Assembly (NCBI RefSeq): GCF_024055715.1 | Contig: NZ_JAMXMV010000008.1 | Coordinates: 310,001 to 374,000, forward strand | Length of the DNA: 64,000 nucleotides | Reading direction: 5' to 3' | From: Actinoallomurus soli | GTDB lineage: Bacteria; Actinomycetota; Actinomycetes; Streptosporangiales; Streptosporangiaceae | Shown here: positions 17,509 to 33,930 of the stretch, one piece after another | Position numbering within the stretch: position 1 is the stretch's first letter | How the letters are laid out: every line of letters starts with the position of its first letter | Position numbers and translations under genes: made by a program | The notes under the pieces: generated by a model | Told to the model about the DNA's origin: nothing | Database searches by the model: none | Seen by the model: only the letters and a program-made list of their open reading frames with translations

Positions 17509-17559
17509 CGCGGCTGGCGGCGGCCGAGGACCTCGGTGAGGCCCTCTCGGCGGCCGGGC

Positions 17560-17675
17560 GCGTCGGGCGGTCTGCGCGTGAGGCGCCTCAACGGCCGGAC
17601 GTGTCGGGCGGTCTGCGCGTGAGGCGCCTCAACGGCCGGGTGCGCCGGGCGGTCTCCGCGTGAGGCGGCTCAGCG
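17560..17675. repeat. 41-bp tandem repeat with a palindromic core
   Basis: Three units, starting near 17563, 17604 and 17645, share TCGGGCGGTCTGCGCGTGAG at their left end. The first two contain the perfect palindrome TGAGGCGCCTCA and the third the variant TGAGGCGGCTCA. They lie between two convergent genes; the last runs into the stop codon of the DUF3037 gene. A bidirectional terminator role is possible but there is no T-run. Confidence 0.7.
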
Positions 17676-19012: not shown

Positions 19013-19049
19013 TTGACGCGTTGAACAATGCCATATCTAATATATTGCA
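19013..19049 (+). promoter_or_regulatory. Leaderless-type promoter with overlapping inverted-repeat operator
   Basis: TTGACG (19013-19018), a 17-bp spacer and TCTAAT (19036-19041) form a good vegetative promoter whose start would fall at or next to the ATG at 19049. The same bases carry an inverted repeat, TGCCATATCT (19029-19038) and ATATATTGCA (19040-19049), which agrees at 8 of 10 positions. This is an AT-rich island in GC-rich DNA. It probably binds the GntR product itself. Confidence 0.6.
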
Positions 19050-19708
19050 TGCCACCTGAACGGCTCCGTCCTCTCGACCGGTCCCTCCTGCGCGACCAGG
19101 CGTACCGCATGCTCCGCGACGCGATCGTCGAGGGCGACCTCGCGCCCGGTGAGATCATTCGCGACGGCGAGCTGGCCGAGCGGGTCGGGCTGTCGCGCAC
19201 GCCGGTGCGCGAGGCGCTCGCCCGTCTCGCCGACGAGGGGCTCGTCGAGACCAAGCCGCACGCCTACACGCGGGTCACGCCGCTCGTGCTCCGCGACGTA
19301 CGGGACGCGTACGTCGTCGTCCGGGCCATGCACGAGCTCGCCGTACGCGCGGCGGTGCCGGTTCTGACCGAGCGGCACCTCGAGACGATGCGCGCCGCGA
19401 ACGCGCGGTTCGCCGCCGCCCTCGACGAGGGGGACGTGCCCGCCGCGCTGGCCGCCGACGACGAGCTGCACGACGTCCCGGTCGCCGCGGCGGGCAACCG
19501 CGCGGTGGCCGCGACGATCGAGCGGTACGTGCCGCTGATCCGGCGGCTGGAGCGGCTGCGGTTCGGCTCGCTCCCGGGCCGGCGTTCCATCGCCCTGCAC
19601 GACCGCCTGATCAACGCCTGCGCCGCGGGCGACACCGAGGCGGCCGCGGCCGCCACCGCCGAGATCTGGGCCACGCTCGGCGACCTTCTGGATGAGGAGA
19701 CCTCGTGA
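19049..19708 (+). CDS. GntR family (FCD domain) transcriptional regulator
   Basis: A 219-residue repressor. The N-terminal winged helix includes [20 protein letters not shown] and the recognition region [19 protein letters not shown]. The C-terminal all-helical FCD domain (from about residue 85) shows the metal/ligand His residues in DDELHDVPV and LHDRLINAC. The ATG at 19049 is preferred over 19028 because a promoter and operator occupy 19013-19049, implying a leaderless message. Its TGA overlaps the acdS GTG (GTGA), so it very probably controls ACC catabolism. Confidence 0.9.
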
Positions 19709-20706
19709 CGACACTGGACGACTTCCCCCGCGAGCGCCTGCTGTTCGGCCCCTCGCCCGTGCATCCGCTGCCCCGGCTGACCGGGTACCTCGGGGGCGGG
19801 GCGAGGCTCTGGGCCAAGCGCGAGGACTGCAACTCCGGCCTGGCGTTCGGCGGCAACAAGACGCGCAAGCTGGAGTACCTCGCCGCCGACGCGCTCGCCC
19901 AGGGCTGCGACACCCTCGTGTCCATCGGCGGCGTGCAGTCCAACCACACCCGGCAGGTCGCCGCCGTGGCCGCCCGGCTCGGCCTGAAGTGCGTCCTGGT
20001 CCAGGAGAGCTGGGTCGACTGGCCCGACGCCGTCTACGACCGGGTCGGCAACATCCTGCTGTCCCGCCTGCTCGGCGCAGACGTACGCCTGGTGGAGGCC
20101 GGGTTCGGCATCGAGTTCAAGCAGAGCTGGGAACAGGCCCTGGAGGACGTCCGCGCCCGTGGCGGCCGGCCGTACGCCATTCCGGCGGGCGCGTCGGACC
20201 ACCGTCTCGGCGGCCTCGGCTTCGCGAACTGGGCGCGCGAGGTGGAAGAGCAGGAGCGGGAGCTCGGCGTCCGCTTCGACACGATCGTCGTCTGCTCGGT
20301 GACCGGGAGCACGCAGGCCGGGATGGTCGCGGGCTTCGCGGGCAAGGGTCGCCGGATCATCGGCATCGACGGCTCCGCCAAACCGAAGGAGACCTGGGAG
20401 CAGATCGCCCGGATCGCCCGGAACACCGCCGAGCTGATCGGGACGGAGGTCGCCGACGACGAGATCGTCCTCGACGAGCGGTACCACGCCGGGACGTACG
20501 GCATCCCGGACGAGCGGACCCTGGAGGCCATGCGGCTGGCCGCGCGGCTGGAGGGGATGATCACCGACCCGGTCTACGAGGGCAAGTCCATGGCCGGAAT
20601 GGTCGATCTGGTGACGAACGGGGAGATCGAGGCAGGATCCAACGTCCTTTACGCTCATCTCGGAGGGCAACCCGCGCTGAACGGATACAGTGCGCTCTTC
20701 CGCTAG
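19705..20706 (+). CDS. acdS: 1-aminocyclopropane-1-carboxylate deaminase (PLP enzyme)
   Basis: A 333-residue fold-II PLP enzyme converting ACC, the ethylene precursor, to 2-oxobutyrate and ammonia. The PLP lysine block is [20 protein letters not shown]. Then come [15 protein letters not shown], the phosphate loop [13 protein letters not shown] and the C-terminal [12 protein letters not shown]. Length and motif spacing favour ACC deaminase over D-cysteine desulfhydrase, but the two families are close and activity needs testing. It is coupled to the GntR gene by a 4-base overlap. Its last 27 codons are duplicated at 33789-33869, upstream of the E1-like gene that was originally its downstream neighbour. 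Confidence 0.88.
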
Positions 20707-20771
20707 CTGATGGGCTGACATCCAGGACGTTCGTGACAATGGGGTCGCGGGTGTGGACCTGGCCGGCGTCG
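20626..20771. repeat. Left copy of the island-flanking direct repeat
   Basis: 146 bases covering the acdS 3' end and the start region of the former downstream gene. They match 33789-33930 (142 bases). The only block of differences is just past the acdS stop: TAGCTGATGGGCTGACATCC here against TGAGAGGCTGACATGC on the right. The ATG of the E1 gene reads ATC in this copy, so the left E1 start is dead. Confidence 0.92.
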
Positions 20772-20772
20772 T

Positions 20773-20836
20773 CTGGACCACTCACCGCTGGAACAACCGG
20801 CCAGCACGACGCCCCTGAACATCGCCAATCCGCGCG
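20773..20836 (+). mobile_element. IS end fragment, copy 1
   Basis: 64 bases identical but for one base to 22954-23017. They encode the last residues of a transposase (WTTHRWNNRPARRP, stop) plus about 18 bases beyond. The fragment starts two bases after the left direct repeat ends, so it marks the left junction of the island. From 20837 to 21022 no gene was recognised. Confidence 0.75.
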
Positions 20837-21022
20837 ACCCTGAAGTGAGAACGCTTCAAGAATCCCGAAGTTACGTCACAGACCTGCGGAGCACCCGAAG
20901 GAGGAAGAACCCCCTGGCTACGGGGTCAGCGGCTCAGCGGGGCTCAGAGGAACTCACGGGATGTCGCACAATCGAGGACACTCGGCCGTGTCCAGGTAGT
21001 CCGTGACGGCCCCGTGAGGGTG

Positions 21023-21775
21023 TCAGACCTGGCCGTATCCGCCGTCGACCTGGTAGTCGGCGCCGTTGACGTGGGAGGCTGCATCTGAGGCGACGAAGGC
21101 GATGACGGCGGCGACCTCTTCCGCGGTACCGGCCCGGGTCATCGGGGTCCCGGTGCCCATCGTGGCGATGAGCGCCTCGCGTTCCTCGGCGGTGGCGGCC
21201 AGTCGTGCGATACCGGGCGTGTCCGTCGGGCCCGGGCTCACCACGTTCACTCGGATCCCGCGTGGGGTCAGCTCAAGGGCCCAGGTACGGGCGAGGGCGC
21301 GGACCCCGGCCTTGGAGGCCGCGTAGAGACTCCGCCCGCGCGACGCCTTGTGCGCGGCCATCGAGCCGGTGAGGACGATGACGCCACCGTCCGCCAGCAG
21401 CGGCAGCGCCTTCTGGACGGTCATGATCGTGCCGGTGATGTTGACGTCGAAGACCGACCTGATGACGTCCTCGGTGATGGTTCCCAGCGGTGCGGTCGCG
21501 ATCGCCGCCGCGTTGACGACCAGCACGTCCAGCCGGCCGCTGCGCTGCTCCACCTGCGCGAAGAGCCGGTCGAGGTCGTCGGCCGAGCGCGAGTCGGCCC
21601 GCACCCCGATGACATCACCCGGTATGTCCGCGGCCGCCGCCGTCAGGGCGTCCTGGTCCCGGCCCGTGATGTAGACGGTGCCGCCCCCTTCGGCGATCTT
21701 CCTCGCGGTGACGTGGCCGATACCGGCACTCCCGCCCGTCACGACCGCGACCTTGTTGCGAAATTCGTTGCTCAT
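21023..21775 (-). CDS. SDR family oxidoreductase
   Basis: A 250-residue classical short-chain dehydrogenase. The cofactor loop is TGGSAGIG (residues 13-20), followed by NAA at the end of strand 4. The catalytic Ser is in LTGSMAAHK and the Y..xK pair in SLYAASKAG. The sequence ends with the usual VDGGY(GQV). The ATG at 21775 starts right before the Rossmann fold; longer in-frame extensions are not credible. It diverges from the XRE regulator at 21940, a frequent actinomycete arrangement in which the regulator controls the SDR gene. Both lie between two copies of the same IS end. Confidence 0.9.
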   Translation of the reverse strand: MSNEFRNKVAVVTGGSAGIGHVTARKIAEGGGTVYITGRDQDALTAAAADIPGDVIGVRADSRSADDLDRLFAQVEQRSGRLDVLVVNAAAIATAPLGTITEDVIRSVFDVNITGTIMTVQKALPLLADGGVIVLTGSMAAHKASRGRSLYAASKAGVRALARTWALELTPRGIRVNVVSPGPTDTPGIARLAATAEEREALIATMGTGTPMTRAGTAEEVAAVIAFVASDAASHVNGADYQVDGGYGQV

Positions 21776-21939
21776 GGAACTCGTCGTCCGTTCATCTGGG
21801 TAGCCGTTCCGAAGGGAACGTCCTGGGGAACACAGGCGGTACGAGCCTGCGCCTTGTGCGGACACCGGTTCCAGAAGCCTGCTGATACTGGTACTGGCAG
21901 CACCAAGCCGACGCCTCCCGGCTCTGGCACAGTGGACAT

Positions 21940-22779
21940 GTGCCGACAACCACGAACCGGACCGAACTGCGGGAGTTCCTGCGCTCACGACGCGCGCGGG
22001 TCTCACCCGAGGACGTCGGCATACGCCCGGGAGTCCGGCGGCGCACCCCCGGACTGCGCCGCGAGGAGGTCGCCCAGCTGGCCGGTGTCGGCATCACCTG
22101 GTACACGTGGCTGGAACAGGGGCGGCCGATCAACGTCAGCTCCCAGGTGCTCGACGCGGTGGCCCGCACGCTGCTTCTGGATGCCGCCGAGCGGGACCAC
22201 CTCTACCGTCTGGCCGAGGTCCCCCAGCCTCCGGTCACCAGCGATCCGCCGACCGAGCTCCCCGGCCACCTCGACACCGTCCTGGAAGCCCTGGACCCGT
22301 TGCCCGCCATGTTGGTCGACGCCCGCACCGACGTGCTGCGCTGGAACCGCGCATACGCCGCCCTGCACCCCGCTCTGGTCAGTGCTCCGCCCGGCAAGCG
22401 CAACACCCTCTGGCACCTCTTCGCGGCACCGGAGGGGCAGCACCGCATCGTCAACCGCGACGAGCAGGCGCCCGAGGCCGTGGCAGGGTTCCGCTATCGC
22501 TACAGCCAGAACATGGGCGACCCGCAATGGCAGGACTTCGTCACCCGTCTGTGCACCGCCAGCCCGCTGTTCTCCCGGCTCTGGGCCACGCACGACGTCG
22601 CTCCACCGCGCCTGTGTGACAAGCGCTACGACGTTACGGGGATCGGCGAAGTGAGCCTGCGTGCCACCGGCATGGAACTGACCGACCACCCCGGTGTCCG
22701 CCTCGTCGTCCACACCCCCACCGACAGGCGCAGCCGCGAGAACATCGACCGCCTGCTGCGCCGGGCGACGCACCTGTGA
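21940..22779 (+). CDS. XRE family regulator with MmyB-like ligand domain
   Basis: A 279-residue regulator. The N-terminal helix-turn-helix shows RRTPGLRREEVAQLAGVGIT followed by WYTWLEQGR. The C-terminal PAS-like MmyB domain (about 105-270) has MLVDARTDVLRWNRAYAALH and ends with the usual LVVHTPTDRRSRE. The family binds small hydrophobic ligands and often represses a divergent oxidoreductase gene, here the SDR at 21023-21775. The start is the GTG at 21940; no strong ribosome-binding site is seen, so the message may be leaderless. Confidence 0.9.
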   Translation: MPTTTNRTELREFLRSRRARVSPEDVGIRPGVRRRTPGLRREEVAQLAGVGITWYTWLEQGRPINVSSQVLDAVARTLLLDAAERDHLYRLAEVPQPPVTSDPPTELPGHLDTVLEALDPLPAMLVDARTDVLRWNRAYAALHPALVSAPPGKRNTLWHLFAAPEGQHRIVNRDEQAPEAVAGFRYRYSQNMGDPQWQDFVTRLCTASPLFSRLWATHDVAPPRLCDKRYDVTGIGEVSLRATGMELTDHPGVRLVVHTPTDRRSRENIDRLLRRATHL

Positions 22780-22788
22780 CGAATGGAC

Positions 22789-23017
22789 CGAGGCCCGGGT
22801 GCGGGCCAAGCCCCACCAGCTGATCCGACAAACTCGGTGGCAAAACGCCTTCAACCGCCTCCAGCACTGCTACGAACGATGCGAGAACGTCATCGACGCA
22901 TTCTTCGACCTCGCCGACGCCATCATCACCCTGCGTAGCCTGATCCGCCGCGCCTGGACCACTCACCGCTGGAACAACCGGCCAGCACGACGCCCCTGAG
23001 CATCGCCAATCCGCGCG
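22789..23017 (+). mobile_element. Transposase C-terminal remnant (IS5-like) with IS end, copy 2
   Basis: A fragment of about 68 codons ending at TGA 22997-22999 reads RVRAKPHQLIRQTRWQNAF, then RLQHCYERCENVIDAFF and LIRRAWTTHRWNNRPARRP. The pattern (R....Y.R....I.AF..L....I..R.L) is that of the C-terminal region of IS5-superfamily transposases; the family assignment is tentative. No upstream part remains. The last 64 bases repeat 20773-20836. Confidence 0.65.
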
Positions 23018-23024
23018 GCTCATA

Positions 23025-23038
23025 AGACAACGTTGTCA
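23025..23038. promoter_or_regulatory. LacI-type operator 1
   Basis: AGACAACGTTGTCA, with a perfect 12-bp palindrome GACAACGTTGTC centred on the CG typical of LacI-family sites. It lies 273 bases upstream of the lacI-type gene at 23311, just past the IS end. One of five related sites in the island. Confidence 0.65.
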
Positions 23039-23203
23039 ACGACGGGTTGATCGCCGTGATCTTCTTGTGATCGGCGGCCTTCCCCGGATGGCCACGGTGG
23101 TGGGCGAGAGAGGCGGTGCTGACCTGGTGATCTAAGGGCCGGAACTCCCCCGACGGCTCGGCCGTTGACACTTCGGGTGGACGGACGGTGCCCAGGGCAG
23201 GGA

Positions 23204-23217
23204 TGATAACGATGTCT
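23204..23217. promoter_or_regulatory. LacI-type operator 2
   Basis: TGATAACGATGTCT, a degenerate form of the shared palindrome, 94 bases upstream of the regulator gene at 23311. It suggests autoregulation, possibly by looping with the site at 23025. The rest of 23039-23310 holds no gene. Confidence 0.5.
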
Positions 23218-23310
23218 CAACCTGGCGGGCTATGCCGCCAAGCGGCCGTCAACCCGCCGAAATCAGGGTGCGACGAACAGGGCTGAGCGATCTCTGGCAG
23301 AAGGGCTCTG

Positions 23311-24327
23311 GTGGACAAGCAGGACAGGCGGCGCAGGCCGACGATCTCAGACGTGGCGGCCGCCGCCGGAGTCAGCCCGAAGACGGTGTCCCGTGTCATC
23401 AACAACGAGCCGGGCGTGCGCGCCGAACTGGCCGATCAAGTGCTCGAGGTGATCAGCAAGCTCGGGTTCCGCCGCAACACCATGGCCAGCTCACTGCGCT
23501 CCGGCAGGCAGACCGCGACCATCGGGCTGATCATCGAAGACCTGGCCAACCCGTTCTACTCCACGATCGCGGCGGCGGTGGCCAACGTCGCGCGCACCCA
23601 CGACACCCAGCTGATCACCGTCAGCTCGGAAGAGGACCCTGACCTCGAGCAACGTCAGTTCCTCCAACTGTGCCAGCGCCGGGTGGACGGCATGATCATC
23701 GTGCCCGCCGGCTCGGACCACTCCTACACCCGGTCCGAGGTCGAGATGGGCATGCGGATGGTCTTCCTGGACCGTCCGCCGTCGGGCATCCTGGCCGACA
23801 GTGTCGTCATCGACAACGCGGCGGGGGCCCGGGCCGGCATCATGAGCCTGCTCGAGGACGGGCACCGCCGGATCGGGGTCGTCATCGACTCCCCGATCAT
23901 CTACACCGCGCGCGAACGGCTGGCCGGCGTACGCTCGGCGCTGGCCGACGCGGGCATCCCCTATGACGACGCCCTGGTCGAGGTCGGCGTCACGAATCCC
24001 GATGAGGCCGCCCACGCCATCGCCACCATGCTCGACGGCGTCGACCCGCCCACCGCGTTCTTCACCGGCAACAACCGGAGCACCATCGGTGCGATCCAGG
24101 AGTTGTACCGCCGTGACAGCGACGCCGCGCTGCTGGGCTTCGACGACTTCGAACTGGCCACACTGATGCCGCGCCCGCTGACCGTGATCGCGTACGACGT
24201 GCAGGAACTCGGCCGCGCAGCCGCCCTCCGGCTGTTCGAGCGGATCGGCGGGGACACCTCCTGGCCGTCGGAGACCGTGATTCCCACGCACCTGGTTCAG
24301 CGGGGCGTCCAGCTTCTGAAGTCCTGA
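23311..24327 (+). CDS. LacI family transcriptional regulator
   Basis: A 338-residue repressor. The helix-turn-helix and hinge are RPTISDVAAAAGVSPKTVSR and RRNTMASSLRSGR. The C-terminal periplasmic-binding-protein-like effector domain starts at TATIGLIIEDLANPFYSTIA and carries the sugar-binding Asp/Arg region RERLAGVRSAL. The start is the GTG at 23311, directly before the HTH. Five matching palindromes around it and its glycosidase neighbours make it the likely local regulator of the glycan-degradation genes at 24488-33714; a mannose-derived effector is inference. Confidence 0.93.
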   Translation: MDKQDRRRRPTISDVAAAAGVSPKTVSRVINNEPGVRAELADQVLEVISKLGFRRNTMASSLRSGRQTATIGLIIEDLANPFYSTIAAAVANVARTHDTQLITVSSEEDPDLEQRQFLQLCQRRVDGMIIVPAGSDHSYTRSEVEMGMRMVFLDRPPSGILADSVVIDNAAGARAGIMSLLEDGHRRIGVVIDSPIIYTARERLAGVRSALADAGIPYDDALVEVGVTNPDEAAHAIATMLDGVDPPTAFFTGNNRSTIGAIQELYRRDSDAALLGFDDFELATLMPRPLTVIAYDVQELGRAAALRLFERIGGDTSWPSETVIPTHLVQRGVQLLKS

Positions 24328-24487
24328 CGCCGGCGCGCGGGACGTGCCGCCGGCGGTCACCCGCGCCCCGGCGAGGGAGCCGCGCGGGCGGCCGGTCAGG
24401 GCGAGGGCGGTGGCGTTCGGCATGACCGCACCGGCGCGGGAGGGAGTACCGCCTCGATGAGCGATGCCCCCTCCGTGATCCGGCGCC

Positions 24488-25702
24488 CTACCGCGCGAAG
24501 CGCAGGTCGAGGAAGCGGGCGCGGTTGTTGTTGACGTTCGCGTACAGGTCGTCGATCTTCTGGCTGTTGACGTTGTAGGAGATCACCAGCTCACCGGGGC
24601 GGCTCAGCTCCGGGTGCGCGGCGATGTTGTACGGCGCGTAGATGTCGCCGCCGCCCTCGGGGGCGGTGTACACGTCGGTGCGGTTCGTGAACGGACCGAC
24701 GGGTGTCGGCGCGGTCGCCACGTAGATGTCGTGACCGAGGTAGGCGTCGGAGGTGGTGAGGACGTAGAAGCCGTTCACCTCGGTGACGCTGTACGAGGCC
24801 CCGACGTTGTCGGTCACGCGCGCCGACGTGGTCGGGTCGTGCGACCAGCCGGAACCGGTGTAGAACTCCCACGAGCGGTCGACGAGGTGGCCGACGCGGG
24901 CCCGCGCGACGTGCATGTGGCCCGACTCGGCGCCGTAGATGTAGATGTAGCCGCCGACGCGCGTCAGCTCGACGCCCCACGACACGTTGCCCTCGTCGTA
25001 GCTGTGGGTCACCTTCGCGCTGCCCAGGTCGCGGGAGAAGGAGGCGATGTCGGTCCTGACCCACGCGAAGTTCCACGGCGGCGGGTCGTCCGTGGGGACC
25101 TGGGCGTACTCGAACAGACGCAGCTTGCCGCCGTCCATGATGCCGTCGCCGTTCCAGTACCAGACGTCGTTCGTTCCCGAGGGATCCCACGGCGGCGTCG
25201 TCGGCGTCTCGCCGACGAGCGACCGCGGTACGTCGTGCGTCCCTCCGGTCAACGTGGTCTCGGGAGGCCCGTCGCGTCCGGCCGTGACGATGGTGTTGTG
25301 CACGAAGCCCGCGTCTTTCGGCAGGCTCTCGTCGGCGTTGACCGGGCCGAGGAAGGTGTCGTTGAGGAGCCATGCGACGCGCCCGCCCGGCAGCGTCGCC
25401 GAGTACGTGCCGTCCGATGCGGCCCAGCCGCGATGGTTCGTCCAGCCACCACCGCTGTCGCCGAACGCGCGCCAGGCGGCGTTCAGGCGCTCATCAGGGA
25501 CGACGCTCGTCACCACCGGTGCCTGCCGGGTGCCGGCGCCGTGCCCGGACTGCGTCGGGGTGCTCGCGAGGGCACTCGGCGCGAGGGTGCCGGTACCGAG
25601 CACCGCCGCGGCCAGAACGGCCGTCGCCGGCCCCACGCGAGCACGCCGGCGACTGCGTCCGGCGGCTCGGAGGCAATGAGCGGGCCACCTACTACGCGTC
25701 AT
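24488..25702 (-). CDS. Secreted five-bladed beta-propeller protein (DUF4185/DUF5005-like)
   Basis: A 404-residue exported protein. A long basic signal peptide (RSRRRARVGPATAVLAAAVL, then GTLAPSALA) is followed by a propeller resembling GH43/GH117-like glycosidases: WRAFGDSGGGWTNHRGWAAS with WLLNDTFLG, GDGIMDGGKLRLFEYAQ, NVSWGVELTRVGGYIYIYG and GDIYAPYNIAAHPELS. Blade-start Asp and Glu residues recur at places where clan-F enzymes keep catalytic acids, but the activity is unproven. A LacI-type operator lies 29 bases upstream of the ATG at 25702. It diverges from nothing; GH92 follows on the same strand upstream. Confidence 0.8.
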   Translation of the reverse strand: MTRSRWPAHCLRAAGRSRRRARVGPATAVLAAAVLGTGTLAPSALASTPTQSGHGAGTRQAPVVTSVVPDERLNAAWRAFGDSGGGWTNHRGWAASDGTYSATLPGGRVAWLLNDTFLGPVNADESLPKDAGFVHNTIVTAGRDGPPETTLTGGTHDVPRSLVGETPTTPPWDPSGTNDVWYWNGDGIMDGGKLRLFEYAQVPTDDPPPWNFAWVRTDIASFSRDLGSAKVTHSYDEGNVSWGVELTRVGGYIYIYGAESGHMHVARARVGHLVDRSWEFYTGSGWSHDPTTSARVTDNVGASYSVTEVNGFYVLTTSDAYLGHDIYVATAPTPVGPFTNRTDVYTAPEGGGDIYAPYNIAAHPELSRPGELVISYNVNSQKIDDLYANVNNNRARFLDLRFAR

Positions 25703-25730
25703 GGAATCGCCTCCTGATTCCTCTCCTCGC

Positions 25731-25744
25731 TGACATCGTTGTCA
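25731..25744. promoter_or_regulatory. LacI-type operator 3
   Basis: TGACATCGTTGTCA, matching the island consensus TGACAWCGWTGTCA with both half-sites intact. It sits between the beta-propeller gene (start 25702) and the 3' end of the GH92 gene (25773), where it would block initiation of the propeller gene. Confidence 0.75.
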
Positions 25745-25772
25745 TCGGTGGACCCGTGTACGGTCCGGGCGG

Positions 25773-28700
25773 TCAGTGCTGAGCGAGCAGCTCCACCTCG
25801 GACAGTCTCAGCGCCTGGCCGTCCGTGGGCGGGTCGAACTCGAACCGTACGTACTGGTAGCTGCCGGTCGCGTCACTCGGCGTGAAGGCCCGCGTCTGCT
25901 GGCGCCAGGTGAACTGCTCTCCGCTTCGGCGGTCCACCTCTGTCCAGTGCGTCCCGTCGGTGGAGACGCTGACCTTCCAGCCCGCCGGATCGCCGCCGGT
26001 CTGGGCGGTGCTGGTGAGCGTGTACTGGGCGATGGAGTGCGGCTGGTCGAACCGGTAGGTGACGGATGCCGATCCGGCGGCGAAGGTGGTCGCGGTGTTC
26101 GAGTCGTTGTCGAACAGTGCGGCCGGGTCGGTGCCGTCGTTCGTCGTGGCCGTTCCCTTCCCCGAACCGGTCTGGTCGGCCGGCGGGTCGGCGACCTTGG
26201 ACCCCGTGGTCAGCGACGGCGGTGCGGCCGAGGGCGCGGTACCCCAGCTCGAGGGGCGCGGGCCCATCTGCAGATCGATGTGCCCACCGCGGGTCAGGTC
26301 GGCGTGCTGGAGATAGGTCTTGTCCCAGCTCTTGCCGTTGATCCGCATCGACTGGACGTAGATGTTCCGGTCGGAGTCGTGGTGCGCGGTGATGGTCAGC
26401 GCACGGCCGCCGGCCGGGCGGATGGTGACCCGCTCGTACAGGGGCGATCCGATGGCGAAGGTGGGCGAGCCCTGCTGCAGCGGGTAGATGCCGAGCGCGT
26501 TGTCGATGTAGAACGCCGACATCGAACCGTTGTCCTCGTCACCGGGGTAGCCCTGGCCGATCGTGCTGCCGGTGAACAGCCGGCCGAGCGCGTCTCGTAC
26601 GTGCGCGGCGGCCTTGGCCGGCTGTCCCACGTAGTCGTACATGTAGGGCACGTGCATCGACGGCTGGTCGTTGAAGGCCCACTGCCCGATCTGGTCGTCC
26701 CGGGACTCGAACATCTCGTGGTAGGCACCGCCCCAGCCGCCGCCGTACTGCGCGGTCTCCGGGGTGGCGAAGAACTGGTCGAGCTTGGCGGCGAGGCCGG
26801 CCCGGCCGCCGTAGAGGTTGGCCAGACCGTTGCCGTCCTCGGGAACGAGGAAGGCGTACGTCCATCCGTCGCCCTCGGTGTAGTCGGTGGAGTTCCAGTC
26901 CAGCGGGTTGTAGGTGCCCGGCGCGTGCTCCCAGCTGCCGTCGGCGTTGCGCGGCTGGAAGAAGCCGGTGGACTTGTCGAACAGGTCGACGTAGTGCTGG
27001 GCCCGGTCGCGGAAGTACCGGTAGTTGTCCTGGTACTCACGCCGGTGCGGGTCGTCGGCCGCACTGGTCTGGTACAGCTTCAGCGACATCTGGGAGATGC
27101 CGTAGTCGGCGATGTAGTCCTCCAGCGAGACCGACGCGCTGGACCCGGTCGTCTGCGGGGTGTAGCCGAGGAAGGTTGAATGCGCCATGTCGGGCCGGCC
27201 GGTCAGCCCGGACGACGGGATGGTGGCGTCCTTGACCGCGGCCTCGTACGCGCTGCGGACGTCGAAGTTCGTCACCCCGCGCAGGTAGGCGTCGGCGATG
27301 GCCACGTCCGAGCTGGTGCCGCTGAAGCCGAGGTAGCCGGGCGCCGTCCACTGCCCGATCCAGCCGCCGTCCCGGTACTGCTGCACGAATCCGTCGATCA
27401 TCTCGCCGGTCAGCTTCGGGTAGAGCAGCGCGTCCAGCGACCAGGCGGTCCGGTAGGTGTCCCAGAAACCCTCGTTGGCGTACGGCTTGCCCTTCACCAC
27501 CGCCGATCCGGTGGTGGTGGGGGTCGCGTGGCCGGTGCCCGAGCGGTACGGGCTGGCGTAGCGGTAGTCGGGGGCGGCCTGGGTGCCGGTGTTCTCGAAC
27601 AGCTCGTTCGGGTACAGGTTCAGGCGGTAGAGACTGGAGTAGAGGCTGGTGAGCTGGTCCTGGCTCGCGCCCTTCGGCTCGATCACGCCCAGTGCCTCAT
27701 CCCAGGTCCGCTGCGCCGCGGCGTGCACCTGGTCGAAGCCGGCGTCGCCGACCTCGAGTTCGAGGTTGTGCTTCGCCTGGTCGACGCTGATGAAGGACGT
27801 GGCGATCCGCATGGTCAGCCGGTGGTCGGCGCCCAGGTCGAAGCCCGCGTATCCGGAGACGTTCGCCCCGCCGCCGCCGGTCAGCGTGCCGTTACCGGTC
27901 ATCGGCCGGTCGAAGGTGGCGTAGACGAACATGCGGGGCGCGCCCCAGAACCCCGAGACGTCGGAGTAGCCGCTGACCACGCCATGCGCGCGGTCGATCG
28001 TCAGACCGCCGTTGTCGTTGACGTTGTCGAAGATCAGGCTGTTCTGGCCGGAGGGGAAACCGAACCGCATCACGGCGGCGTGATCGGTCGGCGTGATCTC
28101 CCCGCGCAGGCCGTTGTCGAAGGTCACGCCGTAGTAGTCGGCGCGAGCCGTCTCATGGTCGTGGCTGAACGCCAGCGCGCGGGCGGCGCGGTCGGCCGTC
28201 GCCGGGACGGCGGACGTGGACGGCATCACCTGGAACGTCTGATGATCGGCGACCCAGATGCTGGGCTCGTGGCTGACGGAGAACGCCTGCAGCTCGGGCT
28301 CGTTCGCGGCGTTGTTGCCCTTCTGGTACGCGTAGATGATCCCGGTGCTGCCCGCGTCGGTGACCGGAGTCCAGAAGTTGAAGCCGTGCGGGAGCGCGGC
28401 GGCCGGGATGTCGTTGCCCCGCGAGTAGTCGCCGGTGGAGTTGGTGCCCCGCGTGGTGATGACGCACGTCGACGGGTGGTGGGCGCAGTCGTTCGCCGGG
28501 GGCGCCGGTGCGATGTCGATGTCGTCCAGCCAGCCGGCGAAGTGCCCGGGACCGGACGGGTCGTCGTAGCCGACCAGGACGCGGGTGATGGTCTTGCCGG
28601 CCGCGACCCGGCCGATGTCGGCGGCCACCGCGTTCCACTGGTCGGTGTGCAGGACCTTCGCCGCTCCCTGCGCCCGCGGGCTCAGGCCCTTGCCGTTCTG

Positions 28701-29687
28701 GTCGGTGGCGCCGAGTTCGCTGAGGTAGGTGCCGTCGCTGAAGGCCAGGTCGACCGCGACGTACGTACTCGGGTATCCCAGATCCCTGCCCGTGAACTCC
28801 GGGAAGACCTTGTAGGACAACCGGGTGTCGCGGCGTACCGGCAAAGAGACCCGGTAGATCTTGTCGTACGCCGTGCCGTGGCCGGTGAGCTGCCAGCCCG
28901 CGTAGTGGAGAGCGTGCGTCCCGGTGAAGCCGACGTGCGTCTTGGCCGTGGGGCTCGACGCCGGGCCGTCCCCGATCGCGGTCGTCATCCCGGCGTCACC
29001 CGGCGGCGCCCCGCCCAGTGCCAGTTCGGCGAGCTGGGTGTGACCGTCACCGTGATTGGCGGAGACCGCCAGCCGGTAGTGGGAGTACGCTCCCGCGTGC
29101 CGGACGGTGAAGAGTCTCGTCTGCGAGCGCTGACCGAACCGCTGCCTGCTCTCGGTGTCCACCGTCTGCCAGGTCCGGCCGTCGGTCGAGCCCTCCAGCC
29201 GCCAGGACTCGGGGTCCCGTTCGGGCCAGTCGGAGGCCGAGGTCATGGCGTAGCCGTCGATCCGGGTGGGTGCGGCGAAGGCCACCGTCAGCGAGGGCGT
29301 CCGGCTCGCGGCCTGCCAGCTGCTGCCGACGTCGCCGTCGACGGCACGTTTCGCGCCGTGGTCGGGCAGGACCTCGTCGCTCGCGGTGACCTCCGTCACC
29401 GCGGACATCGCCGAGCCGGGCAGCCCGGCGCCGGTGTCGGGGTACACGCCCGCCGTTCGGTGGGCGCCGCGGCCGCTGTCCGAGGTGTTCTGCCAGGTAG
29501 GGGCGGGGTCGTTCGGCTCGAACGAGGTCGCGAAGGTGCCGCGTTCGGCGGAAGCCGGCGCGGGCCCGGCCAACGCGCTCTGCGCCGGGAGCAGGGACAG
29601 GACGATGCCGGCCAGTGCCGCCAGCGGTACGGGCGCGGGAGGTCGGGAACAGCGCCTGTGGGAGAGGCGACGAGGGGGTCGGGCCAC
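25773..29687 (-). CDS. Secreted GH92 alpha-mannosidase with F5/8-type C domains
   Basis: An exported exo-alpha-mannosidase of about 1304 residues. Domain order: Sec signal peptide (VPLAALAGIVLSLLPAQSAL), an F5/8-type C/discoidin domain (about 85-220; AVDGDVGSSWQAASRTPSL), a sandwich domain, then GH92 with CVITTRGTNSTGDYSRGNDI, NEGFWDTYRTAWSLDALLYP and the catalytic-base motif GDEDNGSMSAFYIDNALG. A second F5/8-type C domain forms the C-terminus (about 1155-1304). GH92 enzymes are Ca-dependent exo-mannosidases acting mostly on alpha-1,2 to alpha-1,6 links. The GTG at 29687 was chosen for its AAGGAG site seven bases upstream; the frame is open to 29789 without such a site. Operator at 29800. Confidence 0.92.
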   Translation of the reverse strand: MARPPRRLSHRRCSRPPAPVPLAALAGIVLSLLPAQSALAGPAPASAERGTFATSFEPNDPAPTWQNTSDSGRGAHRTAGVYPDTGAGLPGSAMSAVTEVTASDEVLPDHGAKRAVDGDVGSSWQAASRTPSLTVAFAAPTRIDGYAMTSASDWPERDPESWRLEGSTDGRTWQTVDTESRQRFGQRSQTRLFTVRHAGAYSHYRLAVSANHGDGHTQLAELALGGAPPGDAGMTTAIGDGPASSPTAKTHVGFTGTHALHYAGWQLTGHGTAYDKIYRVSLPVRRDTRLSYKVFPEFTGRDLGYPSTYVAVDLAFSDGTYLSELGATDQNGKGLSPRAQGAAKVLHTDQWNAVAADIGRVAAGKTITRVLVGYDDPSGPGHFAGWLDDIDIAPAPPANDCAHHPSTCVITTRGTNSTGDYSRGNDIPAAALPHGFNFWTPVTDAGSTGIIYAYQKGNNAANEPELQAFSVSHEPSIWVADHQTFQVMPSTSAVPATADRAARALAFSHDHETARADYYGVTFDNGLRGEITPTDHAAVMRFGFPSGQNSLIFDNVNDNGGLTIDRAHGVVSGYSDVSGFWGAPRMFVYATFDRPMTGNGTLTGGGGANVSGYAGFDLGADHRLTMRIATSFISVDQAKHNLELEVGDAGFDQVHAAAQRTWDEALGVIEPKGASQDQLTSLYSSLYRLNLYPNELFENTGTQAAPDYRYASPYRSGTGHATPTTTGSAVVKGKPYANEGFWDTYRTAWSLDALLYPKLTGEMIDGFVQQYRDGGWIGQWTAPGYLGFSGTSSDVAIADAYLRGVTNFDVRSAYEAAVKDATIPSSGLTGRPDMAHSTFLGYTPQTTGSSASVSLEDYIADYGISQMSLKLYQTSAADDPHRREYQDNYRYFRDRAQHYVDLFDKSTGFFQPRNADGSWEHAPGTYNPLDWNSTDYTEGDGWTYAFLVPEDGNGLANLYGGRAGLAAKLDQFFATPETAQYGGGWGGAYHEMFESRDDQIGQWAFNDQPSMHVPYMYDYVGQPAKAAAHVRDALGRLFTGSTIGQGYPGDEDNGSMSAFYIDNALGIYPLQQGSPTFAIGSPLYERVTIRPAGGRALTITAHHDSDRNIYVQSMRINGKSWDKTYLQHADLTRGGHIDLQMGPRPSSWGTAPSAAPPSLTTGSKVADPPADQTGSGKGTATTNDGTDPAALFDNDSNTATTFAAGSASVTYRFDQPHSIAQYTLTSTAQTGGDPAGWKVSVSTDGTHWTEVDRRSGEQFTWRQQTRAFTPSDATGSYQYVRFEFDPPTDGQALRLSEVELLAQH

Positions 29688-29799
29688 GACCAGGCTCCTT
29701 GGCGGGGGAGAGAGACGCTTCGACAGCTCGGGAGTTCGCGAAGAGATCTGACGGCTCGGGGAGCGCGGCCGGCGGTCGACGCTAGGCACGCAGGGGCAA

Positions 29800-29813
29800 T
29801 GACAACGTTGACA
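29800..29813. promoter_or_regulatory. LacI-type operator 4
   Basis: TGACAACGTTGACA, one base off a perfect palindrome of the island consensus. It lies 113 bases upstream of the GH92 start at 29687, in the divergent region between GH92 and GH2. Confidence 0.72.
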
Positions 29814-29948
29814 ACAAGGGGACAGTGTCAGACGTGCCGAATTCGCCTGTCAACCCTCCGTCGAGCCCCATCGACGGACATCGGCACCTCGGGTCAGCGT
29901 TGGAGTCTTGACGAACGTGCGGCCTGAGGCCAAAACTAGGCGGAGCTT

Positions 29949-29962
29949 TGACAACGATGTCA
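29949..29962. promoter_or_regulatory. LacI-type operator 5
   Basis: TGACAACGATGTCA, matching the island consensus on both half-sites. It lies 69 bases upstream of the GH2 ATG at 30031 and about 136 bases from operator 4, so the two divergent glycosidase genes can be controlled together. Confidence 0.75.
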
Positions 29963-30030
29963 TGCCATCCGACCTACGTTGCCGTGCCTCCGCGCCACGA
30001 GGTCTCCGCACCACGAGCCAAGGAGCGCCG

Positions 30031-33000
30031 ATGCTCGACGACCATGCCGAGGACACCCGCGAGAGAGCGCGGTTGTCGCGCCGCGACATCCTGCGCACGG
30101 GGGCCACTGTGCTCGCGAGCGTCAGCCTGTTCGGGGCGTTCGAGGACCGGGCCGTCGCGTCGCCCGCCGCAGCGGGCCAGGCGCCCGCCGGCGACCTGGC
30201 GCTCTACCGCCCCGTACAGGTCTCCTCGACCGCTTACGCCCCCACTCCCGGTCACTTCGTCGTCGACCGCATGGCGAGCAGCGGGCCCCGCGGCAGCGGG
30301 TGGCGGGCGGCCGACGCCGAGACCCCGCAGTGGGTGGCCGTCGATCTTCAGGCGGCGTGTCAGGTCACCTCGGTCGTCCTCGTCTTCGAGGCGGCCGAGG
30401 GCGACGTCGTGTTCAAGCCCGCCGACGACGTCAACCCTCGCGTGAACACGACGGGCTGGGAAGTCCTGTCCAGCTACGCCACCCGCTTCCGCATCGAGGT
30501 CTCGCCCGACGGAAAAGCGTGGAAGACGGTCAAAGAGGGCACCACCAAGGCCGGCGGCACCGTCGAGGTGGCCCTCGACCAGCCCGTCACGACGCGGTGG
30601 ATCCGCATGGTCGGCACCGCGCTGTCCAACCCGAACCCCCTGGGCCTGAACTCCTTCCAGGTCCTCGGCACCGCGCCGGCCAACCGTCCGCGGTCGTCGG
30701 GATGGACCGACTGGACGAGCGGCGCCCGGCCGGTCCCCCCGCTCAAGGTCGCGGACGACGGCACCGTGCCGATCGAGTCGGGCTGGAACCTCACCCTCGA
30801 AGGATTCGCCGGCACCGGTGACGGATCGCGGCTGTCGTCCCCTGAGGTGGACACCTCGCGCTGGTTGCGGGCACAGGTGCCGGGCACGGTACTGGCCTCC
30901 CTGGTGGAGGAGGGCCACCTGCCCGACCCCGTGCGGGGCCTCGACAACCTCCACGTCCCGGAGGCGCTCAGCCGCAACTCCTGGTGGTACCGCCGCGTCT
31001 TCGACGTCCCGCATGGTTTCGGCGCCCGCGGCCATGACCACGTCTGGCTGGAACTGGACGGCGTCAACCACCAGGCCGAGATCTGGCTCGACGGCACCAA
31101 GGTGGGCGAGCTCGCCCACCCGTCCGCGCGCGGCGCCTTCGACGTCACCGCCCGGCTCCAGAACGGCGGGCGGCACGTGCTGGCCGTCCGCATCGACCCC
31201 ATGCCCTACCCGGGCAGCCCCGGGGACAAGGGTCCCGACGGCATCCCCTACGCCGACGCCGGCTCCGGCATGATGATGCGCAACGGCCCCACCTACCTGG
31301 CGGTGTCCGGCTGGGACTGGATGCCCGCGGTACGCGACCGCGTCATGGGCATCTGGAACCATGTGCGGCTGCGCTCGACAGGCCCGGCCGTCATCGGCGA
31401 TCCACGGGTGGACACCGTGCTGCCCGATCTGCCGGAACGCTCCCGGGCCGACGTCACCATCACCGTGCCGATCCGTAACGCCTCCGCGAACCGGCGTACG
31501 GTGACGGTCCGGGCCCGGCTCGGCGACGTCCGCGTCCGCAAGGACGTCCCGGTCGACGGCGGGAAGATCGCCGACGCGGTCTTCACCCCGGACGAGTTCT
31601 CCGCCCTGCGCCTGTCCGACCCGGCCCTGTGGTGGCCCAACGGCTACGGCGATCCCACCCTGCACGACCTGGAGGTCTCCGCCTCGGTCGGCGCCGTCAC
31701 GAGCGACCGGCGCACCGTACGGACCGGGTTGCGCCACCTGCAGTACGCCTCCGAGAACCCCATCACCTTCGAACCGGGCGCCAACCGCGTCGAGCAGACC
31801 GTCGACATCCCGACGCAGCAGGCCCGATACGTCCGTGTGCAAGCGGGCCGTCGCGCCACCGGCTACGGCGTCTCCCTGTGGACGCTGTCCGTCATCGACA
31901 GCGCCCAGCCCCAGACCGACCTCGCTCTGCACGGCGACGCCTCCGCCTCTTCCACCGACAATTCCAGCAATCCCGCTTCGGCCGCGGTGGACGGCGACCC
32001 CCAGACCCGCTGGTCGTCCGCCTACTCCGACAACCAGTGGATCCAGGTGGACCTGGGCAAGACACGAACCTTCAACCGGATCACCCTGCTCTGGGAGGTC
32101 GCGTACGCCCTGACCTTCACCATCCAGGTCTCCGACGACGGTCAGAAGTGGACCGATGTCCAGGCCGTCGACAACCGGCCTCACCAGCTGCAGATCAGCG
32201 TCAACGGCGTGAAGATCATGTGCCGTGGCGGCAACTGGGGATGGGACGAACTGCTGCGCCGCATGGGGGGCGGCCGCATGGAGGCCGTGGTCGAGATGCA
32301 CCGCGACATGAACTTCACGATGATCCGCAACTGGCTCGGCAGCAGCGACCGCGAGGAGTTCTACGCCCGTTGCGACGAGAACGGCCTGCTGGTGTGGAAC
32401 GACTTCTGGAACGCGTGGTTCCTCGACCCGCCGGACCACGCGCTCTACCTCGACCACGTACGCGACACCGTGCGACGGTACCGATCGCACCCGTGCATCG
32501 CGGTGTGGTGCGGCGCCAACGAGGGCACTCCTTCGGGCGAGATCGACGAGGGCGCCAAGACGGCCGTCGCCGAGGAGCATCCCGGCGTGCGTTACGTCAG
32601 CAACTCGGCGGCCGGCGTCGTCAGCGGCGGCGGGCCGTACGCCTGGATCGATCCCGCGCAGTACTACTCGCCCCACACTTACGGTGCCGGCACCTTCGGC
32701 TTCCACACCGAGATCGGCATCCCGACCGTGTCGGTCGTCGAGAGCATGCGCAACCTGGTGGGCGACGAGGAGGGCTGGCCCATCGGCACGGTGTGGAACT
32801 ACCACGACTGGTCCACCCGCGGAAACCAGTACCCGCAGAACTACAAGGCGGCGATCGACGAACGCCTGGGCGAGTCGTCCAGCCTGGAGGAGTTCTGCGC
32901 CAAGGCGCAGCTGGTCAACTTCGAGTCCATGCGCGCGATGTTCGAGGCGTGGAACGCCAATCTGTGGAAGGACGCCAGCGGCCTGCTGCTGTGGATGTCC

Positions 33001-33714
33001 AACCCGGCCTGGCACAGCACCGTGTGGCAGACATATGACTACGACCTCGACGTCAACGGCAGCTACTATGGCGCCCGCGCCGGCTGCGAGGCGCACCACG
33101 TGCAGGCCGACCCACAGCACTGGAACGTGATCGCGGTCAACCACACCGCCGGCGAACTGCGCGCGGCGGTCGTCGAGGCCGAAGTGCTGGACCTGTCCGG
33201 TCGGCGGCTGGCGGCACTTCAACGGCAGACCGTCGACATCGCCGCCTCCTCGACGGCGCCCGCCTTCACCGTCGCCCAGCCGGGCGGTGACGTCCCCCTG
33301 CACCTGGTCCGGCTGCGCCTCACGGACGCCGACGGGAAGAAGCTGTCGGAGAACACCTACTGGCGCTGCGCCGAGCCCAAGAATCTCCAGGCGCTGACCA
33401 AGCTGTCCGGAGCCGTCTTGCGCCTCACCGGAGGCCACGTCCGCACCGGACGTGACGGCCGCCTGACCACCACGGTGACCGTGCGCAACACCGGCGACGT
33501 CGTCGCCCCGATGGTCCGGCTCTCGCTCCGCGACCACCGGTCGGGAACCCGGGTGCTGCCCACCCGATACTCCGACAATTACCTGTGGCTGCTGCCGGGA
33601 GAACAGCGGACCGTGACGATCTCCTGTCCACGAGGCGAGCTGTCTCCCGGGCACCTGGAGGTCACGGCGCAGGGCTACGGCACCTCCCGCGTCTCGGATC
33701 GCCCAGGACGCTGA
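30031..33714 (+). CDS. Tat-exported GH2 glycoside hydrolase with nested F5/8-type C domain
   Basis: A 1227-residue enzyme with a twin-arginine signal (LSRRDILRTGATVLASVSLF). Domains: F5/8-type C (about 45-215), GH2 galactose-binding jelly roll (250-440; VPGTVLASLVEEG, SWWYRRVFDVP), immunoglobulin-like domain (445-570), a second discoidin domain (about 575-718) inserted just before the barrel, then the TIM barrel starting VNGVKIMCRGGNWGWDELLR. Acid/base is Glu831 in WCGANEG; the nucleophile is probably Glu894 in FHTEIGIPTV. Motifs are closest to exo-beta-glucosaminidase or beta-mannosidase-like GH2; beta-mannosidase would fit its GH92 partner but is inference. AGGAG lies five bases before the ATG. 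Confidence 0.88.
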   Translation: MLDDHAEDTRERARLSRRDILRTGATVLASVSLFGAFEDRAVASPAAAGQAPAGDLALYRPVQVSSTAYAPTPGHFVVDRMASSGPRGSGWRAADAETPQWVAVDLQAACQVTSVVLVFEAAEGDVVFKPADDVNPRVNTTGWEVLSSYATRFRIEVSPDGKAWKTVKEGTTKAGGTVEVALDQPVTTRWIRMVGTALSNPNPLGLNSFQVLGTAPANRPRSSGWTDWTSGARPVPPLKVADDGTVPIESGWNLTLEGFAGTGDGSRLSSPEVDTSRWLRAQVPGTVLASLVEEGHLPDPVRGLDNLHVPEALSRNSWWYRRVFDVPHGFGARGHDHVWLELDGVNHQAEIWLDGTKVGELAHPSARGAFDVTARLQNGGRHVLAVRIDPMPYPGSPGDKGPDGIPYADAGSGMMMRNGPTYLAVSGWDWMPAVRDRVMGIWNHVRLRSTGPAVIGDPRVDTVLPDLPERSRADVTITVPIRNASANRRTVTVRARLGDVRVRKDVPVDGGKIADAVFTPDEFSALRLSDPALWWPNGYGDPTLHDLEVSASVGAVTSDRRTVRTGLRHLQYASENPITFEPGANRVEQTVDIPTQQARYVRVQAGRRATGYGVSLWTLSVIDSAQPQTDLALHGDASASSTDNSSNPASAAVDGDPQTRWSSAYSDNQWIQVDLGKTRTFNRITLLWEVAYALTFTIQVSDDGQKWTDVQAVDNRPHQLQISVNGVKIMCRGGNWGWDELLRRMGGGRMEAVVEMHRDMNFTMIRNWLGSSDREEFYARCDENGLLVWNDFWNAWFLDPPDHALYLDHVRDTVRRYRSHPCIAVWCGANEGTPSGEIDEGAKTAVAEEHPGVRYVSNSAAGVVSGGGPYAWIDPAQYYSPHTYGAGTFGFHTEIGIPTVSVVESMRNLVGDEEGWPIGTVWNYHDWSTRGNQYPQNYKAAIDERLGESSSLEEFCAKAQLVNFESMRAMFEAWNANLWKDASGLLLWMSNPAWHSTVWQTYDYDLDVNGSYYGARAGCEAHHVQADPQHWNVIAVNHTAGELRAAVVEAEVLDLSGRRLAALQRQTVDIAASSTAPAFTVAQPGGDVPLHLVRLRLTDADGKKLSENTYWRCAEPKNLQALTKLSGAVLRLTGGHVRTGRDGRLTTTVTVRNTGDVVAPMVRLSLRDHRSGTRVLPTRYSDNYLWLLPGEQRTVTISCPRGELSPGHLEVTAQGYGTSRVSDRPGR

Positions 33715-33788
33715 GGCCCGGCCGAACGAGGGATCACTCGAGTCCCGGCGCGCCGCGTCCTGGCGGGCGGCGTGCCGGGCCGAGCAGT

Positions 33789-33930
33789 ATCGAGGCAGGA
33801 TCCAACGTCCTTTACGCTCATCTCGGAGGGCAACCCGCGCTGAACGGATACAGTGCGCTCTTCCGCTGAGAGGCTGACATGCAGGACGTTCGTGACAATG
33901 GGGTCGCGGGTGTGGACCTGGCCGGCGTCG
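33789..33930. repeat. Right copy of the island-flanking direct repeat (acdS 3' fragment plus E1 start)
   Basis: 142 bases matching 20626-20771. The first 81 bases are an in-frame acdS 3' fragment ([20 protein letters not shown] onward, then stop TGA at 33867-33869). It has no start codon of its own acdS frame and is a duplication relic. The rest covers the ribosome-binding site (GAGAGG), the intact ATG at 33879 and the first codons of the E1-like gene. Confidence 0.92.

What the first reader, a model, noticed from the sequence alone, without database searches (positions are those of the whole stretch)
20626..33930. A 13-kb island splits an acdS - E1 operon and is flanked by a 142/146-bp direct repeat
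The 3' end of acdS, its downstream gap and the first codons of the E1-like gene appear twice, at 20626-20771 and 33789-33930. Only the right copy keeps the E1 ATG and only the left keeps the full acdS. The uninterrupted arrangement can therefore be rebuilt exactly: acdS stop, GAGAGG, ATG of E1. A duplication of this length is too long for a transposase target site and suggests integration by homologous recombination with a donor already carrying this junction, or a replicative rearrangement. The repeat would also allow precise excision.
Basis: seen in the sequence. Interest (0 to 1): 0.8.

Follow-up and report, generated by a model that had tools for sequence, protein, structure and literature searches.

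The report
Gene insertion with long target duplication
A 13-kilobase block made mostly of ordinary sugar-degradation genes was inserted between two neighbouring genes of a soil actinomycete, and the 142-146 bases at the insertion point now lie on both sides so that both genes stayed whole; this resembles a known but poorly understood way for genes to move without a mobile element.

Summary
Window 20626-20771 and 33789-33930 are copies of one acdS-E1 junction: 79 bp identical, three substitutions and a 4-nt insertion within 18 bp, then 49 bp identical. A same-genus genome (G007) has GntR-acdS-E1 uninterrupted, so the 13,017 bp between the copies are an insertion. None of the 11 insert ORFs scanned is a recombinase or transposase. 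Its main part, LacI-DUF5005-GH92-GH2 (23025-33714), is 90-92% identical to a cluster elsewhere in G004, probably Actinoallomurus spadix; the DNA flanking that cluster in G004 lies on another contig of the window's genome, without the cluster. A scan of 1.92 Mb from two Actinoallomurus genomes found a second such insertion (G004 uninterrupted) and a third candidate. An element with RepSA, an integrase-like gene and tRNA-Tyr in the same genome looks different. This fits "insertion with long target duplication", described in Helicobacter pylori. Illegitimate end-joining or copying repair is the likeliest mechanism, not proven.

The parts
19028..19708 (+). GntR/FCD regulator, first gene of the split operon
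   Evidence: Pfam GntR and FCD over cut-off; contiguous with acdS in G007 and G004
19705..20706 (+). acdS, ACC deaminase, complete
   Evidence: NCBIfam TIGR01274 557 bits, cut-off 392
20626..20771 (+). left copy of the target duplication: acdS 3' end, gap, first bases of E1 with ATG changed to ATC
20770..20836 (+). remnant 1 of an IS5-type transposase 3' tail, abutting the left copy
   Evidence: 97% over 67 bp to remnant 2; about 84% to a tail on G000 contig C9
21023..22006 (-). SDR-family oxidoreductase ORF (the domain covers about residues 81-326, so the true start is probably nearer 21770)
   Evidence: Pfam adh_short_C2 191 bits; NCBIfam stretches
21940..22779 (+). MmyB-type helix-turn-helix regulator
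22781..23026 (+). remnant 2 of the IS5-type transposase tail (72 codons and stop, then the end region)
   Evidence: translation; one matching plasmid gene is annotated IS5 family transposase
23025..33714 (.). block orthologous to G004 C11:134111-153812
   Evidence: 90-92% identity
23311..24327 (+). LacI-family regulator
   Evidence: Pfam LacI, Peripla_BP_1
24488..25702 (-). DUF5005 protein
   Evidence: Pfam PF16396
25773..29789 (-). GH92 glycoside hydrolase with F5/8 type C modules
   Evidence: Pfam Glyco_hydro_92 441 bits
29908..33714 (+). GH2, exo-beta-D-glucosaminidase-like, with F5/8 type C modules
   Evidence: Pfam Ig_GlcNase, Glyco_hydro_2_N2
33715..33788 (.). 74 bp with a strong hairpin between the GH2 stop and the right copy; origin unknown, perhaps the GH2 terminator
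   Evidence: fold -42.7 kcal/mol; matches only its own place in the loci held; in the family search only stretches of about 45 bp or less among the listed rows
33789..33930 (+). right copy of the target duplication: truncated acdS 3' end, gap, intact E1 start
33879..36242 (+). E1-type (pyruvate dehydrogenase E1 / transketolase-like) gene, complete
   Evidence: Pfam Transketolase_N, PDH_E1_M; aceE-like, below cut-off

Best explanation
[quoted passage not shown] SHOWN: acdS and E1 are neighbours in a relative; 13,017 bp lie between them here; 142-146 bp of the target lie on both sides, so acdS ends on the left copy and E1 starts in the right copy. No gene for the block's own movement was found, and most of it is a glycan-degradation cluster that sits at another chromosomal place in the close relative G004. 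INFERRED: a break or stalled fork at the acdS-E1 junction took up this piece of chromosomal DNA by illegitimate repair. Either a staggered break was filled in on both sides and joined to a captured fragment (Ku-type end joining), or a copying strand left in E1 and came back about 146 bp upstream in acdS. Insertions whose duplication spares both genes are the ones that survive. The 18-bp cluster of changes in the gap is read as a scar of that event or of later decay.
For: Uninterrupted acdS-E1 in G007 and E1 still joined to a decayed acdS end in G001. No recombinase among the 11 insert ORFs scanned, which fill most of the insert. Orthologous block at another locus in G004 whose flanks map to G000 contig C60 without the block. 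Block identity (90.2-92.1%) is like that of its flanks (86.9-92.6% in six pieces), as for ordinary vertical descent. A second insertion of the same build at C59:137397-141713, 3,072 bp between copies of a 755-bp target (left copy lacks 265 bp), with G004 uninterrupted. A third candidate on C22, 259-bp repeat around an MFS/MerR insert. Target lengths differ, as expected for repair and not for an enzyme. In the third candidate the six differences fall two each on codon positions 1, 2 and 3, as in a freely decaying copy. Ku is present. In Streptomyces ambofaciens five insertions of its own DNA, 30 bp to 18.8 kb, were found at break-healing sites (PMC5869714, passages and Discussion).
Against: No donor copy of the 13 kb was seen in the genome, which a copying mechanism would leave behind unless lost later or taken from another cell. 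The inferred old site on C60 is not clean: it holds 4.8 kb of other genes, and in G007 its two flanks lie on different contigs. Direction of the move is not settled: G004 has 9 kb between GH92 and GH2 and Actinacidiphila rubida 5.8 kb, where the window and Streptomyces acidipaludis have them adjacent. Microhomology at the junctions could not be scored, because the pre-insertion ends of the fragment are unknown. The changes are clustered in the gap (P about 0.006) rather than spread, and both copies differ from G007 there. In the second case two of the three differences, both in the response regulator, are at third codon positions, which fits two selected alleles as well as decay. LigD was not looked for.
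Confidence: 0.5

Rival explanations
1. One-sided homologous recombination. A related strain had acdS followed by an E1 stub and the island; its DNA entered, crossed over in acdS on the left and joined illegitimately on the right inside the recipient's acdS end. The left copy is then the donor allele with a decaying E1 start, the right copy the recipient allele.
For: Explains why only the left copy has a broken E1 start. E1 loss behind acdS does occur in the genus: G004 goes from acdS straight to the gene that follows E1 in the window. In the second case two of three differences are at third codon positions.
Against: No strain with that donor arrangement was seen: of 60 relatives only G007 matched through the junction, with E1 intact behind it; the insert's left part had no close match in 8 genus genomes. 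The copies are identical over 79 and 49 bp, little for two alleles of separate strains. In the third candidate the differences are not biased to third codon positions.
Confidence: 0.25
2. Decayed site-specific element: the repeat is attL/attR of an integrase that used the acdS 3' end, and the integrase gene has been lost.
For: Long att-like repeats exist in this genome: the pair C22:2608-2720/12517-12628 (113 bp, 96.5%) flanks 9.8 kb with RepSA, an integrase-like gene and tRNA-Tyr at the right copy. The repeat spans a gene 3' end.
Against: No integrase or Rep among the 11 insert ORFs scanned and no tRNA in the window. The cargo lies in G004 without such a repeat around it (0 direct repeats over the threshold in 57.6 kb). 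Repeat lengths differ between the cases (146, 755, 259 bp).
Confidence: 0.1
3. A circle bearing the island and a copy of the acdS-E1 junction integrated by a single crossover (circle model proposed for moved genes in Arabidopsis, PMC2869330).
For: Gives the same end structure; the circle model is in print (passages).
Against: The circle must first pick up exactly this junction; there is no third copy of the junction in the genome.
Confidence: 0.08
4. IS-driven movement: the two IS5-type tails mark a composite or one-ended transposition that brought the block.
For: IS tails abut the left copy and the left end of the glycosidase block.
Against: Both are 3' fragments; none was seen at the right end; IS5 is reported to make 4-bp duplications (PMC3031569, passages), not 142 bp. 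They explain the internal joins, not the flanking repeat.
Confidence: 0.04
5. Assembly artefact: a chimaeric contig with a false repeat.
For: Draft genome of 60 contigs.
Against: The copies differ by 3 substitutions and 4 nt, unlike a false join of one sequence; the insert's neighbours are syntenic with G007 on both sides.
Confidence: 0.03

Closest known systems
Insertion with long target duplication in Helicobacter pylori (Nobusato et al. 2000; described in passages of PMC1643837 and PMC3031569)
   Same: Genes inserted in one strain and flanked by a long, variable duplication of the target
   Different: There frequently linked to restriction-modification genes; here a glycosidase cluster in a Ku-bearing actinomycete, at another place than in a close relative, with one more case in the same genome. 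The 2000 paper itself was not read
Insertion of own DNA at double-strand breaks in Streptomyces ambofaciens (PMC5869714)
   Same: Actinomycete; inserted DNA from its own chromosome, 30 bp to 18.8 kb
   Different: No long target duplication is mentioned in the passages and the Discussion read
Transposed Arabidopsis genes with flanking repeats (PMC2869330)
   Same: Moved non-transposon genes, some flanked by direct repeats matching the target site of a sister species
   Different: Plant; circle insertion proposed (passages read)
Actinomycete integrative conjugative elements (pSAM2/SLP1 type; the class is recalled, RepSA is named 'pSAM2' by Pfam)
   Same: Direct repeat of about 110 bp at both ends; one such element is on C22 of this genome
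   Different: Integrase-like gene, Rep and tRNA target there; none found here

Membership tests
Insertion with long target duplication | Target single-copy and uninterrupted in a relative | tested here: met
   G007 GntR-acdS-E1 contiguous
Insertion with long target duplication | Long direct duplication of the target flanking the insert, of variable length between cases | tested here: met
   146/142 bp here; 755 bp with a 265-bp deletion in one copy at C59:137397-141713
Insertion with long target duplication | Frequent link to restriction-modification genes (association, not definition) | tested here: not met
   Pfam hits among the 11 insert ORFs scanned are SDR, MmyB, LacI, DUF5005, GH92, GH2
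Capture at a double-strand break by Ku-type end joining | Ku protein present | tested here: met
   PF02735, 195 bits, C3:7183-7725
Capture at a double-strand break by Ku-type end joining | Staggered ends filled in before joining; LigD | not tested
   Needs the event itself in a tractable strain; LigD not searched
Integrative element (AICE/IME) | Integrase gene within the element | tested here: not met
   None among the 11 insert ORFs scanned; the contrast element on C22 has an integrase-like gene, Pfam 26.3 bits, just under the 27.1 cut-off
Integrative element (AICE/IME) | tRNA target | tested here: not met
   0 tRNA genes in the 64-kb window; some elements use protein genes, so this alone does not exclude
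Composite transposon | Complete IS copies at both ends, short target duplication | tested here: not met
   Two 3' fragments, both in the left quarter; 142-146-bp duplication

The most novel reading that the evidence does not exclude
Actinoallomurus genomes repeatedly take up blocks of ordinary genes by a recombinase-free process that duplicates about 140 to 760 bp of the target and so keeps both neighbouring genes whole. This would be a general, non-mobile-element route by which metabolic clusters relocate in actinomycete chromosomes.
Probability: 0.25. Interest if true: 0.65.

Novelty: new member of a known kind. Interest (0 to 1): 0.45.

Why it matters
How non-mobile genes change place in bacterial chromosomes without transposases or integrases is little understood. 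Here the target before insertion, the product, and a relative holding most of the cargo at another locus can all be read, and a second case of the same build lies about 189 kb away on the same contig. That makes break-repair, copying and one-sided homologous models testable by comparing conspecific strains.

Tried and rejected
Chance repeat: rejected. Site-specific element: no integrase, Rep or tRNA found. Composite transposon: only 3' tails. Phage or plasmid origin: no megablast match in phages; in plasmids 14 records, none covering 80% of the query, the best listed about 10%. A quasi-palindrome explanation of the 18-bp cluster (by eye, no call) was dropped because both arms would have had to change. 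An empty donor site on C60 was expected, but 4.8 kb of other genes lie there. The repeat in G000 C11 (two neighbouring ORFs sharing a segment) and two C22 rows near an ORF that looks like an integrase by eye (not scanned) were set aside as other causes. The two short C59 rows (51 and 57 bp) and the five rows from G007 C11 were not resolved. Not all overlapping and antisense ORFs of the insert were scanned: 11 were.
Full report
OBSERVATION. The two copies are 20626-20771 and 33789-33930. They share 79 identical bases, then differ by a 4-nt insertion and three substitutions within 18 nt of the left copy, then share 49 identical bases. In the whole 9.42-Mb draft genome (60 contigs, window on contig C59) the 146-bp sequence matches only these two places at E <= 0.001. 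Shuffled windows gave longest exact repeats of 16-19 bp (20 mononucleotide shuffles).

THE TARGET. In G007 of the same genus, GntR, acdS, E1 and the following gene are contiguous, with the gap TAA GGGGCTGAC ATG; the right copy here reads TGA GAGGCTGAC ATG, the left TAG CTGATGGGCTGAC ATC. G001 has a degenerate acdS end joined to E1, close to the end of its contig. G004 has acdS but no E1: its acdS is followed directly by the gene that lies behind E1 here. In G002, G005 and G006 no acdS was matched within the 1.5 kb held upstream of E1. So the contiguous state exists outside this lineage and the 13,017 bp are an insertion.

THE INSERT. From left to right: an IS5-type transposase tail (20770-20836), an SDR and an MmyB-type regulator, a second longer IS5-type tail (22781-23026), LacI, DUF5005, GH92, GH2, and 74 bp with a strong hairpin. 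The transposase is named from one annotated Streptomyces plasmid gene; Pfam gave no significant match to the fragment. No recombinase was found among the 11 insert ORFs scanned. The block 23025-33714 is orthologous to G004 C11:134111-153812 at 90-92%; there it has an extra 9 kb between GH92 and GH2, and upstream of LacI, beyond a palindromic sequence GACAACGTTGTC, lies other DNA whose matches in the own genome are 66-72% for the larger pieces. G004 is probably A. spadix KCTC 9252, because its C11 has the same length (467,626) as a named A. spadix contig with the same GH2. The DNA on both sides of the cluster in G004 maps to contig C60 of the window's genome (C60:164800-173239 and 149801-160023), and between these points C60 holds 4.8 kb with SDR, Clp_N, DUF6000 and DUF2332 genes instead. 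In G007 the two flanks are on different contigs. Block identity (90.2-92.1%) is like that of the flanks (86.9-92.6%), so vertical descent with a change of place is the simplest reading. Which species moved the block is not settled: GH92 and GH2 are adjacent in Streptomyces acidipaludis as in the window, but 5.8 kb apart in Actinacidiphila rubida.

IS IT ALONE? All of C59 (389 kb) and C60 (328 kb), the first 400 kb of G000 C11, of G000 C22 and of G007 C11, and 57.6 kb of G004 were scanned for direct repeats (at least 50 bp, at least 88%, 0.5-80 kb apart): 6, 0, 1, 4, 5 and 0 rows. The six rows of C59 are the finding, the IS tails, two rows of one further case, and two short rows not followed. 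The further case, C59:137397-137886 and 140959-141713, has 3,072 bp between copies of a response-regulator / SseB-like junction; the left copy lacks 265 bp; G004 C8 is uninterrupted there. As in the finding, the left copy completes one gene and the right copy the other. Two ORFs of its insert were scanned and matched no Pfam family, so what it carries is unknown. Its three differences are two at third codon positions (response regulator) and one at a first (SseB-like). On C22, 259-bp copies (116255-116513, 119104-119362) flank an MFS transporter and a MerR regulator; on the left the copy ends an open frame at its stop codon, on the right it is only a fragment; its six differences are two each at codon positions 1, 2 and 3; no empty site was available, so it stays a candidate. 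On the same contig a 113-bp repeat pair flanks DNA with RepSA and an integrase-like gene, with a tRNA-Tyr at the right copy: this shows what a site-specific element looks like in this genome, and the finding does not look like it. With stricter limits (at least 60 bp, at least 92%) the five genus stretches keep 8 rows (recounted; the AICE-like, paralogue and IS rows included), while 79 loci (1.73 Mb) of actinomycetes (one of them A. spadix) gave 0. Those loci are short (up to about 25 kb) and all centred on GH2 genes, so this is a weak control.

MECHANISM. Variable target lengths, absence of a recombinase among the genes scanned, presence of Ku and insertion of own DNA at breaks in S. ambofaciens (PMC5869714, passages and Discussion) favour illegitimate repair: fill-in of a staggered break around a captured fragment, or a copying strand that returns upstream. 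Against: no donor copy was seen, junction microhomology cannot be scored, and the clustered changes are not explained.

LITERATURE. 'Insertion with long target duplication' was described by Nobusato et al. 2000 in H. pylori; I saw it through passages of PMC1643837, PMC3031569 and PMC3154945 and a reference entry in PMC3874152, not the paper itself; Furuta et al. 2010 is not held. PMC2869330 (passages) reports a like pattern in Arabidopsis and proposes circles. The listings of searches (13 of 13 papers; 10 of 111; 19 of 19 papers with the phrase 'long target duplication'; 8 of 9,760) showed no title or abstract start on this pattern in actinomycetes; apart from the papers named above only listings were read, and most subscription papers are not held.

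VERDICT. A well-supported case of a known but mechanistically open kind of insertion, in a new setting, with one further confirmed case and one candidate in the same genome.

Noticed in passing
G000:C59:137397-141713 (L236, L237), outside the window: Second insertion with target duplication: 3,072 bp between copies of a response-regulator/SseB-like junction; left copy lacks 265 bp; G004 C8:161969-163511 uninterrupted.
   Followed up: yes
G000:C59:140060-140103 (L237:60-103): A stretch of about 40 bp inside that second insert matches several places in four or more genus genomes at 89-97%: a small dispersed repeat.
   Followed up: no
G000:C22:116255-119362 (L304): 259-bp direct repeat (97.7%) around an MFS transporter and a MerR regulator; candidate third case, no empty site available.
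   Followed up: partly
G000:C22:2608-12660 (L299): Element of pSAM2/SLP1 type: RepSA, integrase-like gene, 113-bp repeat pair, tRNA-Tyr at the right copy.
   Followed up: partly
G004:C13:2241-2321 (L025): G004 (probably A. spadix) has no E1 behind acdS: acdS is followed directly by the gene that lies behind E1 in the window.
   Followed up: partly
L215 and L216 (G000:C9, G007:C19): Two IS5-type tails at apparently unrelated places both begin at the same base (CTGCGTAGCCTGATCCG); a defined small element or a breakage hot spot.
   Followed up: no
G000:C60:160024-164799 (L105:2025-6800): The place where G004 has the glycosidase cluster holds other genes here, one of them (Clp_N) 91% identical to DNA on contig C1 of G004: a hot spot of gene exchange.
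   Followed up: partly
window 17546-17668: Three tandem 41-bp repeats; copies 2 and 3 are 90% and 85% like the first.
   Followed up: no
G007:C11:264827-270576 and 281663-283304: Two direct-repeat pairs; homology to G000 C60 (182889) ends exactly at the end of the left copy at 281801.
   Followed up: partly
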